Below are positions 6,541 to 34,553 of a DNA stretch of 64,000 nucleotides, in pieces; the stretch's first letter is position 1; every line of letters begins with the position of its first letter. The notes under the pieces are model-generated. The model did not search any database, was not told the DNA's origin, and saw only the letters and a program-made list of their open reading frames with translations. The stretch comes from Neonectria sp. B-13. Taxonomy: Eukaryota > Ascomycota > Sordariomycetes > Hypocreales > Nectriaceae. A program made the position numbers and the translations under genes. The stretch is taken from NCBI GenBank assembly GCA_002682825.1, contig NOKP01000016.1:1763660-1827659 (forward strand), given 5' to 3'.

Positions 6541-6609
6541 CGGACCGTTCGGCCGCGACTCGAGTCGGGCGCTTTGCCGCTCCATGAACTCGTACGGAAC
6601 TTTCGGCCG
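6541..6609 (-). promoter_or_regulatory. Two exact CGGCCGAA-N4-CCG sites in the P450-1/Rieske divergent promoter
   Basis: Read on the minus strand, 6541-6555 is CGGCCGAACGGTCCG and 6595-6609 is CGGCCGAAAGTTCCG. Both keep the same eight-base core, a four-base spacer and CCG. They lie in the 542-base region between the starts of two divergent genes. CGG/CCG half-sites at fixed spacing are the usual target of Zn2Cys6 regulators. Confidence 0.75.
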
Positions 6610-6787
6610 GGCAGCGGAGCTGGTTCTATCAACGAGACTCGTAGTCACCGTACGGTTATCGAAGGAACGGCGTCGGGCCGGAACCTATGATTAATGAGCA
6701 CAAAATCTTGTGTCATTACACTTCGTGGCGCGAGTAATCCTTCTCTGGAGACAACCTCAGTTGCCGAGAAAACAAAATCAGTTCAAT

Positions 6788-8137
6788 ATGCAGAGCACTC
6801 TTCCAGCATCTTGGTATCGCGAGCCAGCTTTTTACCAACTGGAGCGACGCGCCATATTCAGTAAATCATGGATCTTGATCTCTCACACTCACCAATTTAA
6901 TGAGCCTGGCAAATATGCCCGGTATGAAATGGCTGGCTATCCATTTTTCGTCATCAGGGATCGTGCCGGCAACATTAACGCCTTCCTCAATATTTGTCGT
7001 CACAGAGCCTTCCCGATTGTTCATGAGGATCAAGGAAAGGTCATGGTCCTCTCGTGTAAATATCATGGTATGAGTCGCATAGAATCCGAAACCTTGATGC
7101 ACTGGCTGACAAGAACGTTGTGGTAGGATGGTCGTACGGTATGAATGGGAACTTGGCCAAGGCTCCTCGATTCGACAAAGTGGACGAGTTCAAAAAGGAG
7201 GACTACAAACTGTACAAGGTGCATACTCATGTCGACAGTCTTGGGTTCCTCTGGGTCAACCTGGATTCGGCCGAGCAGCCAACATTGAGCTGGGAGGAGC
7301 AGTTCGGGGGTGTCGACAAGCAGCCCCGGCTGGAGAATTTTGACATGAGCAACTACGAGTACGACCATACCTGGTCCATGGAAGGCAAGTTCAACTGGAA
7401 GACTCTCATTGAGAACTACAACGAGGTTCGTACATCACTAGCGCAACATGTTAGCTCTTAGCTTACTGACAGCGGCAGTGCTACCATTGTCCCACGGCAC
7501 ATCCAGGTCTTGCACCCTTTTTTCAAAACAACAGACAAATGGTATACGGTTGCAACAAGTACTGGGTTGAACATCTTGGTGGTAAGGGAGAAGAGCGATC
7601 CAGCTCGGTCAGCCCAACGTACATGTTCCCGAACGCTTCGGTCACTTTGACGTGAGTCTATGGATAAATCGGTGCCTTTTTTCCATGAAATAAGCTAACA
7701 GGTCTTACAGCCCCATCTTCTTCTACATGATGTCTATCGTTCCAACCTCGGCAACCACCAGCTTGATGCGCTATGAAGTGTATCGTTCCAAGACTGCAAC
7801 GCCAGAGCAACTGAAGGAGAAACTGGACTTCTTCAGCCAAGTCGAGGCGGAGGACAAGTGGCTCGCCAACGGAACACAGTCCAATCTGAACACGGACACT
7901 TACACGACCGGGCCATTCCACCCCGATGTTGAACAGGGAGTCACCTACGTCAAGGGGCTGGTAAAGACGATGCTGCACGAGCACGTGGCCGAGGAGAAGA
8001 AGCGCGGTTCGGAGTGGTGGCCCGCTCGCAGAGCTCCGGTCCAGGCGTCTACGGAGGAGGATGAGGCCTTCTGTCGTGGTGTTTGTGAGAACTCTACTCT
8101 CAATGGGAACAGCGCTACCGAAGGTCTGTCATGGTAG
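6788..8137 (+). CDS. Rieske [2Fe-2S] non-haem iron oxygenase, alpha-subunit type
   Basis: Exons 6788-7067, 7127-7425, 7479-7651 and 7711-8137 give about 392 residues. I chose the ATG at 6788 because the open frame upstream (from 6710) has no family-like sequence. The Rieske cluster ligands are C70-x-H72 (CRHRAFP) and C90-x2-H93 (CKYHGWSYG). The mononuclear-iron site is in NECYHCPTAHP, with His about 196 and 201. This order is that of choline-monooxygenase-like and aromatic-ring oxygenase alpha subunits. No beta subunit or dedicated reductase is present nearby, so electrons must come from elsewhere. The flavin-reductase-like protein at 12284 is a candidate only by position. The likely role is hydroxylation, demethylation or ring activation of the cluster substrate. 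Confidence 0.9.
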
Positions 8138-8690
8138 TTCAGGCGGTGTCATGTATGTTCGGGCAGCCAGATCGTAGCATTGTCTTGAAATGAATTTCCT
8201 AACCTATCTAATTGTCTGATTCCTGGGCCACCATTGTCTCTTCTTATTTTATCTTACAACTCAGACATTTTGGAATTGTGTGGAATGGCTAATTATTATT
8301 GAATGATTATATATCGCCCCGGAACAAACATACTTTCCTTGCCGAACTTAGTGGTCATACTTTGGACATGAGAAGAGCAATCAAGTGTGCATTCGTTTGC
8401 TGTGGCGTTACGACGATGCTAAACGATGTACTATAACATGCTTGCCATCACGTTCTCGTTTTCTTGATCATTACAAATGGATATATCAAAGCAACTTCGT
8501 AGATGAAACAGAACTCTTTTCACACCGGAGACGCACCATAAATCATACTACGCAACAACGCAACTAGTTCCAGTGATTTTCATACTTGTATCTCAACAGG
8601 CGTGCATAAATGTCAGTTCTTGTCTCCCATCGCTCTGTCCACTTAATTCTCTACTCCCTTGCCCTTATTCTGATAGCATATCCTTCTGGC
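8138..8690. other. Convergent 3' intergenic region
   Basis: This stretch lies between the ends of the Rieske gene and P450 gene 2. It is AT-leaning sequence as expected for two 3' UTRs. I see no gene, RNA or repeat in it. Confidence 0.5.
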
Positions 8691-32590: not shown

Positions 32591-32794
32591 GCACCGATAC
32601 ATAGGCTTATATTTACGGCGTGTTAAATGAAAGAGAGCCTATGCTGTTTAACATTAACGCCTTCGATTCAAACGGTGGCATGCGTATTGTTTGACAAGTC
32701 AACAAACTTTATCACAGCCGGGGCAATTTAATGTGTGGATTCACATCGCATGACCAAGACAATAGTTTGAGCAAATTGTTACTTATTCCCTACC

Positions 32795-34221
32795 TCATTT
32801 CTCCCCCTTCGGCACAGCTGGGCTCACTCGCATGCTATGCTCAATGTCATACATGATATCCTTAATGTGCTCAATACCAACAGACACTCTAACCATCTCA
32901 GGGGCAACACCCAAATCGATCTTCTCTTGGGGCAACATTGGTTTATGGGTGGTGGACCACGGGTGCATGGCCGTCGTTTTGGCATCGCCATATCTGGTGG
33001 TGTTAGCTATGGTGACCGATGCATAAAAGTGATAGGAGAGGTAGAAGAAGGAGTTCCTCACCCGGGGTTATTGGAGATCATTTTGAAATTATCAACCAGC
33101 TGCTCTCCCGCGTCCGCTCCACCTTTAATACCAAACATGAGCACCGCTCCAGCTCCTCGAGGCAGATACTTCAGCGCGAGCTGGTAGTGCGGATGGCTAG
33201 GGAGACCTGGGTAGGAAACCCATTCCACGTTCTCATGCTTCTCGAGCCAACTGGCAAGGGCAATAGTGTTCTGAGCATGCCTCTCGCACCGCAAGCTCAG
33301 CGTTTCAAGTCCGAGGATGAACTGCTGGCTGTTGAACGGAGAGAGGCATGAGCCGACATCACGCAGTATCTGGCCGCGGATGCGCATAATGAAGGCCTCT
33401 CGCCCGAACGTCTCGGCAAAGTTGAGCCCATGGAACCCGGGGCAGGGCTTGTTGAACTGCGGGAAACGGGTCGACTCTTTCCAGTTGAAGTTGCCCGAGT
33501 CGACAATGATTCCACCCGTCGCGCTACCGTGGCCTCCGATCCACTTGCTCAGGCTTTCAACCACGATGTCGGCGCCGTGCTTGATGGGCTGGCAGAAGTA
33601 CGCGCAGCCGACAGTGTTTTCGACTACGAGAGGGACGCCGCCGGCATGCGCTACTCGAGCAATGGCCTCGATGTCAGGCACATTGAAGTTGGGGTGGCCA
33701 ACCGTCTCGATGTATACGGCTTTCGTGCGCTCATCAATGGCTGCTCGCACCGCCTCGGCGGTCTCCTCTACCACTCGGCACTCGACTCCAAACTCCGGTA
33801 GTAGGAAGGAGAATTGGTTGTAGGCGCCGTGGTAGTAATGCTTGGTTGCGACGATATTCTCGCCGTGACCAGCCAAAGCAATCATGGTCATGAAGACTGC
33901 CGACTGGCCGGACGCCACCGCTACAGCTGCAACGCCTCCTTCAAGGGCTGCGACGCGACGCTCAACCACAGCTGTTGTTGGGTTGCCCGTGCGTGTGGCA
34001 ATATCGCCCTCTTCCTCCAGGGCGAAGAGCCTCGCAGCGTGCGCCGAGCTGTGGAAGTTGAAGACGTATGTTTGGTATATAGGTACACCACGCGCCATCG
34101 TCGCAGAGTCGGGCTTCTGCCCTGCGTGTACCTGCAAGGTCTCAAACTCAGGAACGTGCTCTGATTCCCGTGCTTTCGTCACGGTCGGCTGTGCCGGTAC
34201 GACAACTTGATTTCCAGTCAT
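32795..34221 (-). CDS. PLP-dependent Cys/Met-metabolism enzyme (O-acetylhomoserine sulfhydrylase-like)
   Basis: Exons 34221-33062 and 32993-32795 give about 452 residues. Recognisable segments are FETLQVHAGQKPD at the N-terminus, RTGNPTTAVVERRVAALEGG, VASGQSAVF and the cofactor lysine in SLSKWIGGHGSATGG. The C-terminal GDAKTTAMHPWSTTH and the APEMVRVSVGIEH segment complete the family pattern. Housekeeping relatives make homocysteine or methionine. A copy inside a catabolic cluster may act on a sulfur-containing or amino-acid-like intermediate, or may simply be a neighbour. It is divergent from FAD monooxygenase 2, with a one-mismatch cluster site between them, which argues for membership. Confidence 0.9.
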
Positions 34222-34538
34222 GGTCGAGTTGACAGGCTCCAGCGCAGATTTTTGGAGAATACAATGTGCCCCTGTTTTGAATAAAGTGTGTCGTGTCGCA
34301 AAGACAGACCAAGTTATGCGGCGAACTTTGAATCGATTTGGTGACGGTTGGTGGTATTCGAGGATGGTGTGAAGAGGATTGCAAGGTTGCGCAAGCTTCA
34401 GAAACCGAGATCATCCAAGAATCTAACAAAGCATGACGGGAACTTCTGTGCGTGTCATGTGCTTTTCGGCGCTAAATGTGAACCATCGTCTTGAATCCAA
34501 TGCCGAAAGGAAATATTTGCCCGGTCACAAGGCGTCGT

Positions 34539-34553
34539 CGGGCATTTCGGACG
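34539..34553 (-). promoter_or_regulatory. One-mismatch cluster site in the sulfhydrylase/FAD-monooxygenase-2 promoter
   Basis: Read on the minus strand: CGTCCGAA ATGC CCG, one change from the core, correct spacer. It lies in the 561-base region between 34221 and 34783 and is the last copy found in this direction. Confidence 0.6.

What the first reader, a model, noticed from the sequence alone, without database searches (positions are those of the whole stretch)
6541..34553. A shared 15-base operator, CGGCCGAA-N4-CCG, marks the cluster regulon
Five exact copies lie at 6541 (-), 6595 (-), 16090 (+), 23973 (+) and 31069 (-). One-mismatch copies lie at 18667 (-), 25761 (+) and 34539 (-). Two-mismatch copies lie at 12044 and 18633, and variants with a three-base spacer at 10845 and 2129. 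All fall in promoter regions, and they include every divergent promoter from P450-1/Rieske to the sulfhydrylase/FAD-monooxygenase-2 pair. Eleven fixed bases should occur by chance about 0.03 times in 64 kb on two strands. The regulator's own promoter has an exact copy, so the Zn2Cys6 protein at 13253-15940 is the likely binder and may regulate itself. I found none within one change in the promoters of the transporter, regulator 2, SAT4, HET or secreted-protein genes.
Basis: seen in the sequence. Interest (0 to 1): 0.9.

Follow-up and report, generated by a model that had tools for sequence, protein, structure and literature searches.

The report
Shared control site across fungal cluster
A repeated 15-letter DNA sequence lies in front of 15 of the 18 genes of a fungal gene cluster that may break down aromatic compounds, and it is likely the docking site of the cluster's own regulator protein, which would let the whole set be switched on together.

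Summary
The 60.9-Mb genome has 50 exact copies; five lie within 24.5 kb here, where 0.018 would be expected. CGG-N6-CGG-CCG describes the sites better: eight copies between cluster genes, none inside them, the most frequent gapped word of that shape there (next best 3). Spacer 6 stands out (10 intergenic copies in 2000-44000; other spacers 0-4). Leave-one-out matrices find it in 11 of 16 promoters tested, not in those of NmrA, amidohydrolase-2, SDR or the transporter. One claim is wrong: regulator 2 has a copy (43698-43721), about 880 bp upstream. A dioxygenase relic, a regulator relic and a regulator paralogue outside the window also carry it. The in-cluster Zn2Cys6 protein is the most likely binder; locus numbers suggest its gene is syntenic with cluster enzymes in three Fusarium species. 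Binding, activation and conservation in orthologous promoters are untested. It is a well-supported new member of a known kind (compare TerR, KojR); the abutting third triplet is its unusual feature.

The parts
6541..6555 (+). operator CGGACCGTTCGGCCG, promoter P450-1|Rieske
6595..6609 (+). operator CGGAACTTTCGGCCG, promoter P450-1|Rieske
   Evidence: best site of its promoter, leave-one-out 0/400
10845..10859 (-). operator variant, spacer 5 or one mismatch, promoter of P450-2
   Evidence: leave-one-out 0/400
12035..12058 (.). two-sided operator TGG-N6-CGGCCG-N6-CCG, promoter cupin|flavin reductase
   Evidence: exact CGGN6CGGCCG at 12044(-), one mismatch at 12035(+); leave-one-out 7/400
16090..16104 (-). 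operator CGGCGACTTCGGCCG, promoter regulator 1|beta-lactamase-like gene
   Evidence: leave-one-out 0/400
18633..18647 (-). operator variant CGGGTCCCTCGGCCA, promoter YCII-like gene|regulator relic
   Evidence: leave-one-out 1/400
18667..18681 (+). operator CGGAGGGTCCGGCCG, promoter YCII-like gene|regulator relic
   Evidence: exact CGGN6CGGCCG; its stretch matches 20 of 23 bases upstream of the regulator paralogue (E 0.042)
23964..23987 (.). two-sided operator CGG-N6-CGGCCG-N6-CCG, promoter of amidohydrolase-1
   Evidence: exact on both strands; leave-one-out 0/400
25761..25775 (-). operator, one mismatch, promoter FAA hydrolase|VOC dioxygenase
   Evidence: leave-one-out 0/400
31069..31083 (+). 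operator CGGAAACTTCGGCCG, promoter P450-3|FAD monooxygenase-1
   Evidence: leave-one-out 0/400
34539..34553 (+). operator, one mismatch, promoter sulfhydrylase-like|FAD monooxygenase-2
   Evidence: leave-one-out 8/400
   Evidence: exact CGGN6CGGCCG at 43698(+), one mismatch at 43707(-); 0/400 with a matrix not trained on it
2120..2143 (.). operator left of a decayed dioxygenase copy
   Evidence: exact CGGN6CGGCCG at 2120(+); leave-one-out 0/400
13253..15928 (-). regulator 1, Zn2Cys6 protein (824 aa model), likely binder
   Evidence: gene model; Zn_clus and Fungal_trans; zinc cluster motif
40059..42815 (-). regulator 2, Fungal_trans; zinc cluster apparently split by an intron, so the N-terminus of the model is uncertain
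2638..3224 (+). relic of a second copy of the VOC dioxygenase gene
   Evidence: 75-78% DNA identity to two stretches of 26327-27143
18759..19380 (+). relic of a regulator gene
   Evidence: 70-75% DNA identity to two stretches of the regulator paralogue in L025
4731..6245 (-). P450-1 gene
6788..8137 (+). Rieske oxygenase gene
8691..10454 (-). P450-2 gene
11138..11769 (-). cupin gene
12284..12994 (+). flavin reductase-like gene
16317..17623 (+). beta-lactamase-family gene
17960..18492 (-). small YCII-like gene (approximate, read by eye; may be damaged)
   Evidence: frames, where the gene finder gave no model; YCII at 21.3 bits, cut-off 24; P0015 has a similar N-terminus fused to a regulator-1 sequence
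19473..20485 (-). NmrA-like gene, no operator
20678..21922 (-). amidohydrolase-2 gene, no operator
22072..23802 (-). amidohydrolase-1 gene
24607..25567 (-). FAA hydrolase-like gene
25970..27139 (+). VOC (extradiol-dioxygenase-like) gene
27431..28420 (+). SDR gene, no operator
28785..30856 (-). P450-3 gene
31310..32590 (+). FAD monooxygenase-1 (salicylate hydroxylase-like) gene
32795..34221 (-). Cys/Met-metabolism PLP enzyme (sulfhydrylase-like) gene
34783..36246 (+). FAD monooxygenase-2 gene

Best explanation
A direct-repeat DNA element, CGG-N6-CGG-CCG, stands upstream of 15 of the 18 genes of this fungal cluster and is likely bound by the cluster's own Zn2Cys6 regulator (13253-15928), which would thereby switch the cluster, and itself, on together. 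Shown from sequence: the element, its preferred 6-base spacer, its placement between genes, its local concentration, and its presence upstream of the regulator gene, of regulator 2, of a regulator paralogue and of two relics. Inferred: a dimer of the regulator reads the two CGG triplets in direct orientation, as is reported for KojR; the abutting CCG extends the site; a central site in a divergent promoter serves both genes; the effect is activation in response to an aromatic compound.
For: Enrichment: 5 exact copies in 24.5 kb against 0.018 expected; 11 CGGN6CGGCCG in the window against 1.08 expected (P 2.2e-8). CGGN6CGGCCG is the commonest gapped 9-letter word of that shape between the genes of 4731-36246 (8; next 3), with 0 copies in genes; the other 125 arrangements of its letters occur at most once each. 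Spacing: k=6 gives 10 intergenic and 0 genic copies in 2000-44000; every other k from 0 to 15 gives 0-4 intergenic. Leave-one-promoter-out matrices: in 11 of 16 promoters at most 8 of 400 shuffles score as well, including regulator 2, which was not in the training set. Placement: 5 of 5 exact copies here are noncoding; of 18 non-duplicate exact copies elsewhere that I could read (of 45 outside the window), 13 fall in predicted coding sequence and 5 do not (Fisher P 0.0075). Footprint: the site before the regulator relic matches the site before the regulator paralogue at 20 of 23 bases. Binder: regulator 1 lies inside the cluster with a site in its promoter; its zinc cluster is nearly unchanged in aligned relatives from Ilyonectria, Fusarium, Colletotrichum and Cylindrodendrum; locus numbers suggest synteny with FAD-2 or Rieske in three Fusarium species. 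KojR prefers CGGCTAATGCGG, a CGGN6CGG (PMC10890517, passages).
Against: No binding or expression data. NmrA, amidohydrolase-2 and SDR lack a site, and the MFS promoter has no convincing one (33/400). Two other Zn2Cys6 genes carry the element upstream and could be the binder or a partner. The matrix does not single out the paralogue's promoter (33/400), though its core is exact. Genome-wide the element is no commoner than its reversed controls. The zinc cluster does not point to one known specificity: CBF3b, HAP1 and GAL4 match with close scores (28.9, 25.1, 24.5 bits). I recall TA in HAP1's spacer; none of 14 sites has A there. In Cylindrodendrum the nearest FAD-2 relative (71%) is not numbered near the regulator-1 relative. 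Orthologous promoters could not be read.
Confidence: 0.7

Rival explanations
1. The element is real, but its main reader is regulator 2 (40059-42815), the paralogue left of the window, or a heterodimer of two of the three Zn2Cys6 proteins.
For: Regulator 2 has a site about 880 bp upstream (0/400). The paralogue, whose last match ends 1.3 kb left of the window, has an exact core site upstream and 35-41% identity to regulator 1. The regulator relic inside the cluster aligns with the paralogue and not, beyond chance matches, with regulator 1.
Against: Regulator 1 is the one inside the cluster, and locus numbers suggest its relatives lie among cluster genes in Fusarium. Regulator 2 lies beyond the transporter, and its site is far from its modelled ATG.
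Confidence: 0.2
2. The element belongs to a broadly acting regulator and the cluster is just one target among many.
For: The genome holds 45 exact copies outside the window and about 1,030 CGGN6CGGCCG; 5 of the 18 outside copies read are noncoding.
Against: 13 of those 18 are coding; reversed controls are as frequent or more so (86 vs 50; 1401 vs 1041; 32 vs 34 for CGGRNNYYTCGGCCG, of which 4 lie in the window); in the list no other place holds five exact copies this close; ten 10-kb stretches round paralogues of the regulator, Rieske and VOC genes hold one CGGN6CGGCCG in all.
Confidence: 0.06
3. Chance product of CpG-rich promoters.
For: The element is made only of C and G; other spacers also give some intergenic copies (4 at k=1, 3 at k=5), and one-mismatch arms beside CGGCCG are common in background DNA (25 of 51).
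Against: Spacing, letter-permutation and dinucleotide-shuffle controls do not reproduce it; exact arms are rare in the background (5 of 51).
Confidence: 0.03

Closest known systems
TerR / terrein cluster of Aspergillus terreus (PMC4360782, passages read)
   Same: Zn2Cys6 regulator encoded in its cluster; CGG direct repeats in the promoters of cluster genes; some cluster genes lack the site; a T as last spacer base goes with binding of a second monomer.
   Different: Spacer of 5 (TCGGHHWYHCGGH), biosynthetic cluster, no third CCG triplet in the consensus.
KojR / kojic acid cluster of Aspergillus oryzae (PMC10890517, passages read)
   Same: Cluster Zn2Cys6 regulator that prefers CGGCTAATGCGG, a CGG direct repeat with spacer 6; four CGGN6CGG in the kojT promoter.
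   Different: No abutting CCG in the consensus; kojic acid biosynthesis; no binding seen at kojA.
HAP1 of Saccharomyces cerevisiae (solved structures found by sequence; site consensus recalled)
   Same: KRKVKCDK shared in the zinc cluster; recalled direct CGG repeat with spacer 6.
   Different: Recalled TA in the spacer is absent; CBF3b and GAL4 match the zinc cluster about as well; heme regulation not tested.
Otf1/Gtf1 of Candida parapsilosis (PMC8929692, passages read)
   Same: Zn2Cys6 activators encoded in aromatic catabolic clusters, with motifs in cluster promoters, tested there by deletion and gel shift.
   Different: Motifs are GGRN10WCC and GGAN7TCC; pathways are 3-oxoadipate and gentisate.

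Membership tests
Cluster-specific Zn2Cys6 direct-repeat regulon (TerR/KojR kind) | Zn2Cys6 regulator gene inside the cluster | tested here: met
   CX2CX6CX5CX2CX6C at 15710-15790, Zn_clus and Fungal_trans
Cluster-specific Zn2Cys6 direct-repeat regulon (TerR/KojR kind) | CGG direct repeat of fixed spacing in most cluster promoters | tested here: met
   spacer 6: 10 intergenic, 0 genic; upstream of 15 of 18 genes from P450-1 to FAD-2, the weakly supported YCII-like gene included
Cluster-specific Zn2Cys6 direct-repeat regulon (TerR/KojR kind) | sites concentrated at the cluster, not genome-wide | tested here: met
Cluster-specific Zn2Cys6 direct-repeat regulon (TerR/KojR kind) | regulator binds the sites and controls the genes | not testable with these tools
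   needs gel shift, DAP-seq and a deletion strain
Cluster-specific Zn2Cys6 direct-repeat regulon (TerR/KojR kind) | sites conserved before orthologous genes in related species | not tested
   no DNA of related fungi could be reached; only the paralogue and relic sites in the same genome
HAP1 | CGG-N6-CGG direct repeat (recalled) | tested here: met
HAP1 | TA inside the spacer (consensus recalled) | tested here: not met
   A at site position 8 in 0 of 14 sites
GliZ-type palindrome | TCGGN3CCGA inverted repeat (PMC7022936, passages) | tested here: not met
   14 aligned sites show CGGN6CGGCCG; the two inner triplets abut with no spacer

The most novel reading that the evidence does not exclude
CGG-N6-CGG-CCG is a three-triplet composite site. 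A direct-repeat dimer reads CGG-N6-CGG and a further zinc cluster, from a partner among the two or three regulators that themselves carry the site, reads the abutting CCG, so the cluster is switched by a small mutually wired set of duplicated regulators. Their decayed copies have left operators standing as fossils of an older, larger regulon.
Probability: 0.18. Interest if true: 0.55.

Novelty: new member of a known kind. Interest (0 to 1): 0.4.

Why it matters
It gives a testable cis-regulatory code for a fungal cluster found in several Nectriaceae and likely catabolic, with a named candidate regulator and a countable gene set. An abutting third triplet would be a small addition to what is known of Zn2Cys6 site grammar.

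Tried and rejected
Symmetric 24-base operator (CGGN6CGGCCGN6CCG): only 23964-23987 is exact in the window, and genome-wide the form with up to one mismatch is rarer than its reversed control (395 against 649 places), so the asymmetric 15-mer was kept. Direct repeat alone: between the genes of 4731-36246, CGGN6CGG with CCG occurs 8 times and without it 5 times, three of these five being degenerate operators or overlapping one; in genes 0 with and 19 without. A tighter pattern, CGGRNNYYTCGGCCG, has 34 copies in the genome, 4 of them in the window, against 32 for its reversed control. Alignment of the promoter of the VOC relic with that of the intact VOC gene gave only chance-level matches outside the gene, so the relic's site is placed by position, not by homology. 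Pathway: the listings (3 papers; 15 of 754; 12 of 89) showed no title or abstract describing this cluster; the Aspergillus terreus salicylate paper (PMC7842363, passages) describes other clusters. Motif: in the listings (15 of 278; 12 of 48) I saw none that names CGGN6CGGCCG; the papers themselves were not read through. PMC12719309 (passages) gives CCGN7CCG for AcuK/AcuM and one promoter with three triplets, 22-31 bp apart.
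Full report
What was asked. The finding claims a shared 15-base operator, CGGCCGAA-N4-CCG, across a fungal gene cluster, bound by the cluster's own Zn2Cys6 regulator.

Observation. Every coordinate given is right. Within 2 mismatches the window holds 35 matches (5 exact, 8 with one, 22 with two mismatches); 100 dinucleotide shuffles give 12.5 on average and at most 22. The window lies at C35:1763660-1827659 of a 60.93-Mb assembly in 123 contigs. 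That genome has 50 exact copies, the reversed pattern 86. Five of the 50 lie within 24,543 bp here, where 0.018 would be expected from the other 45. The assembly holds inverted duplicate stretches, so some of the 45 are counted twice; the length is doubled with them, so the rate is little changed.

A better description. I made gene models with a simple coding-and-splice model trained on the window and counted words between and inside genes. Read on the other strand the pattern is CGG-N4-TT-CGG-CCG. Dropping the two T's gives CGGN6CGGCCG, with 8 copies between genes of 4731-36246 and none inside genes. It is the commonest gapped 9-letter word of that shape there (the next has 3), and the other 125 arrangements of the same letters occur at most once each. 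The whole window has 11, against 1.08 expected from the genome rate; one of them (52246) lies outside the cluster. Varying the spacer from 0 to 15 over 2000-44000, spacer 6 gives 10 intergenic and 0 genic copies, the others 0 to 4 intergenic (4 at spacer 1, 3 at spacer 5) and 0 to 3 genic. In 14 hand-picked sites from ten promoters every triplet position is kept in at least 13; the last two spacer bases are mostly T (9 and 11 of 14). The abutting CCG is part of the signal: of 16 intergenic CGGCCG in 2000-44000, 9 have an exact arm at the right distance, against 0 of 9 genic and 5 of 51 in 200 kb of other DNA. Arms with one mismatch tell nothing (25 of 51 in the background).

Which promoters. 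A matrix built from the sites of all other promoters was used to scan each of 16 promoters against 400 dinucleotide shuffles of that promoter. In eleven at most 8 of 400 shuffles scored as well: VOC relic 0, P450-1|Rieske 0, P450-2 0, cupin|flavin reductase 7, regulator 1|beta-lactamase 0, YCII|regulator relic 1, amidohydrolase-1 0, FAA|VOC 0, P450-3|FAD-1 0, sulfhydrylase|FAD-2 8, regulator 2 0. Five did not pass: NmrA 106, amidohydrolase-2 255, SDR 131, MFS transporter 33, regulator paralogue 33. The six divergent gene pairs from P450-1|Rieske to sulfhydrylase|FAD-2 all have a site, 160 to 350 bp from the modelled starts. Of the 18 genes from P450-1 to FAD-2, 15 have a site upstream; the three without are NmrA, amidohydrolase-2 and SDR, each behind another gene on the same strand. 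Two cautions: the sites that trained the matrices were chosen knowing the motif (regulator 2 was not in the training set), and one of the 18 genes, the YCII-like one, is weakly supported.

Regulator 2 has a site at 43698-43721, about 880 bp upstream of its modelled ATG; the N-terminus of that model is uncertain because the zinc cluster appears split by an intron. One-mismatch copies at 23964, 43698, 43707 and 9612 were not listed; 9612 is inside P450-2. The MFS promoter contains a 100-base N gap (36769-36868), so its lack of a site is not certain.

Traces of duplication. A gene for a regulator paralogue lies just left of the window (model from L025:6328, 35-41% identity to regulator 1). Its upstream DNA holds an exact CGGN6CGGCCG (L025:5534). 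Between 18759 and 19380 lies a relic 70-75% identical in DNA to that paralogue; the stretch round the operator at 18667, ahead of the relic, matches the paralogue's at 20 of 23 bases (E 0.042). At 2638-3224 lies a relic of the VOC dioxygenase gene (75-78% DNA identity) with an operator at 2120-2143 to its left, and a 263-bp element with inverted ends between them. The relic's promoter does not align with the intact one, so that pairing rests on position.

Other copies in the genome. Of the 45 exact copies outside the window I read 18 that were not inverted duplicates of one another: 13 fall in coding sequence and 5 do not, by my own gene finder on 1.6-3 kb stretches. All 5 in the window are noncoding (Fisher P 0.0075). 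Ten 10-kb stretches round paralogues of the regulator, Rieske and VOC genes hold one CGGN6CGGCCG in all (L036).

Who binds. Regulator 1 (13253-15928) has a canonical zinc cluster and a Fungal_trans domain. Among solved structures its zinc cluster matches CBF3b, HAP1/CYP1 and GAL4 with close scores (28.9, 25.1 and 24.5 bits), so sequence alone does not fix its specificity. KojR is reported to prefer CGGCTAATGCGG (PMC10890517, passages), and TerR reads CGG direct repeats with spacer 5 in the promoters of its cluster (PMC4360782, passages). The closest relatives of regulator 1 are in Ilyonectria (88%), Fusarium (61-65%), Colletotrichum (54-63%) and Diaporthe (54-74%). In 10 related proteins aligned to it the zinc cluster is nearly unchanged except in Fonsecaea. 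Locus numbers in protein names suggest synteny: regulator 1 and FAD-2 are 008920 and 008909 in F. nematophilum and 7629 and 7617 in F. sarcochroum; regulator 1 and Rieske are g10759 and g10763 in F. decemcellulare. In the window the distances are 12 and 4 genes. Against this, in Cylindrodendrum the regulator relative is g3602 and the nearest FAD-2 relative (71%) g3897, on contigs of different length. That Cylindrodendrum protein (P0015) begins with a sequence like the window's YCII-like protein fused to a regulator-1 sequence, as expected if those two genes are neighbours there. Inference: regulator 1 is the likely binder and regulates itself through 16090.

What the cluster does. FAD-1 resembles salicylate 1-monooxygenase (314.9 bits, cut-off 446.35) and the VOC protein weakly resembles extradiol dioxygenases (58 bits to HpaD, cut-off 321.4); flavin reductase, FAA hydrolase and two amidohydrolases accompany them. 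The closest solved relative of the Rieske protein is carnitine monooxygenase, ahead of aromatic ring hydroxylases, so its substrate need not be aromatic. An aromatic catabolic pathway is the likely reading; the substrate is unknown.

Verdict. The element is real and concentrated at this cluster; its binder and direction of action are inferred. It is a new member of a known kind, with an abutting third triplet as its unusual feature.

Noticed in passing
window 2638-3224: Relic of a second VOC dioxygenase gene (75-78% DNA identity to stretches of 26327-27143), 5' part missing.
   Followed up: yes
window 18759-19380: Relic of a Zn2Cys6 regulator gene inside the cluster, closest to the paralogue left of the window.
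   Followed up: yes
L025:6328-8743: Regulator paralogue just left of the window, 35-41% identical to regulator 1, next to AT-rich DNA.
   Followed up: partly
window 2256-2522: About 263-bp element with 36-base inverted ends (86% complementary, flanking TA included), MITE-like.
   Followed up: partly
window 46191-47161 and 48245-49205: Inverted repeat of about 970 bp, 90% identical.
   Followed up: no
window 25970-27139 with 24607-25567 and 31310-32590: Enzymes that together suggest aromatic hydroxylation and extradiol (meta) cleavage in a fungus.
   Followed up: partly
G000 contigs such as C38: Several contigs hold the same matches twice in inverted order; in C38 the two positions sum to the contig length plus one, as if the contig were joined to its own reverse complement.
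   Followed up: no
window 36247-37633: MFS promoter holds three CGGN6CGG without the CCG (36689, 36883, 37410) and a 100-base N gap (36769-36868).
   Followed up: no
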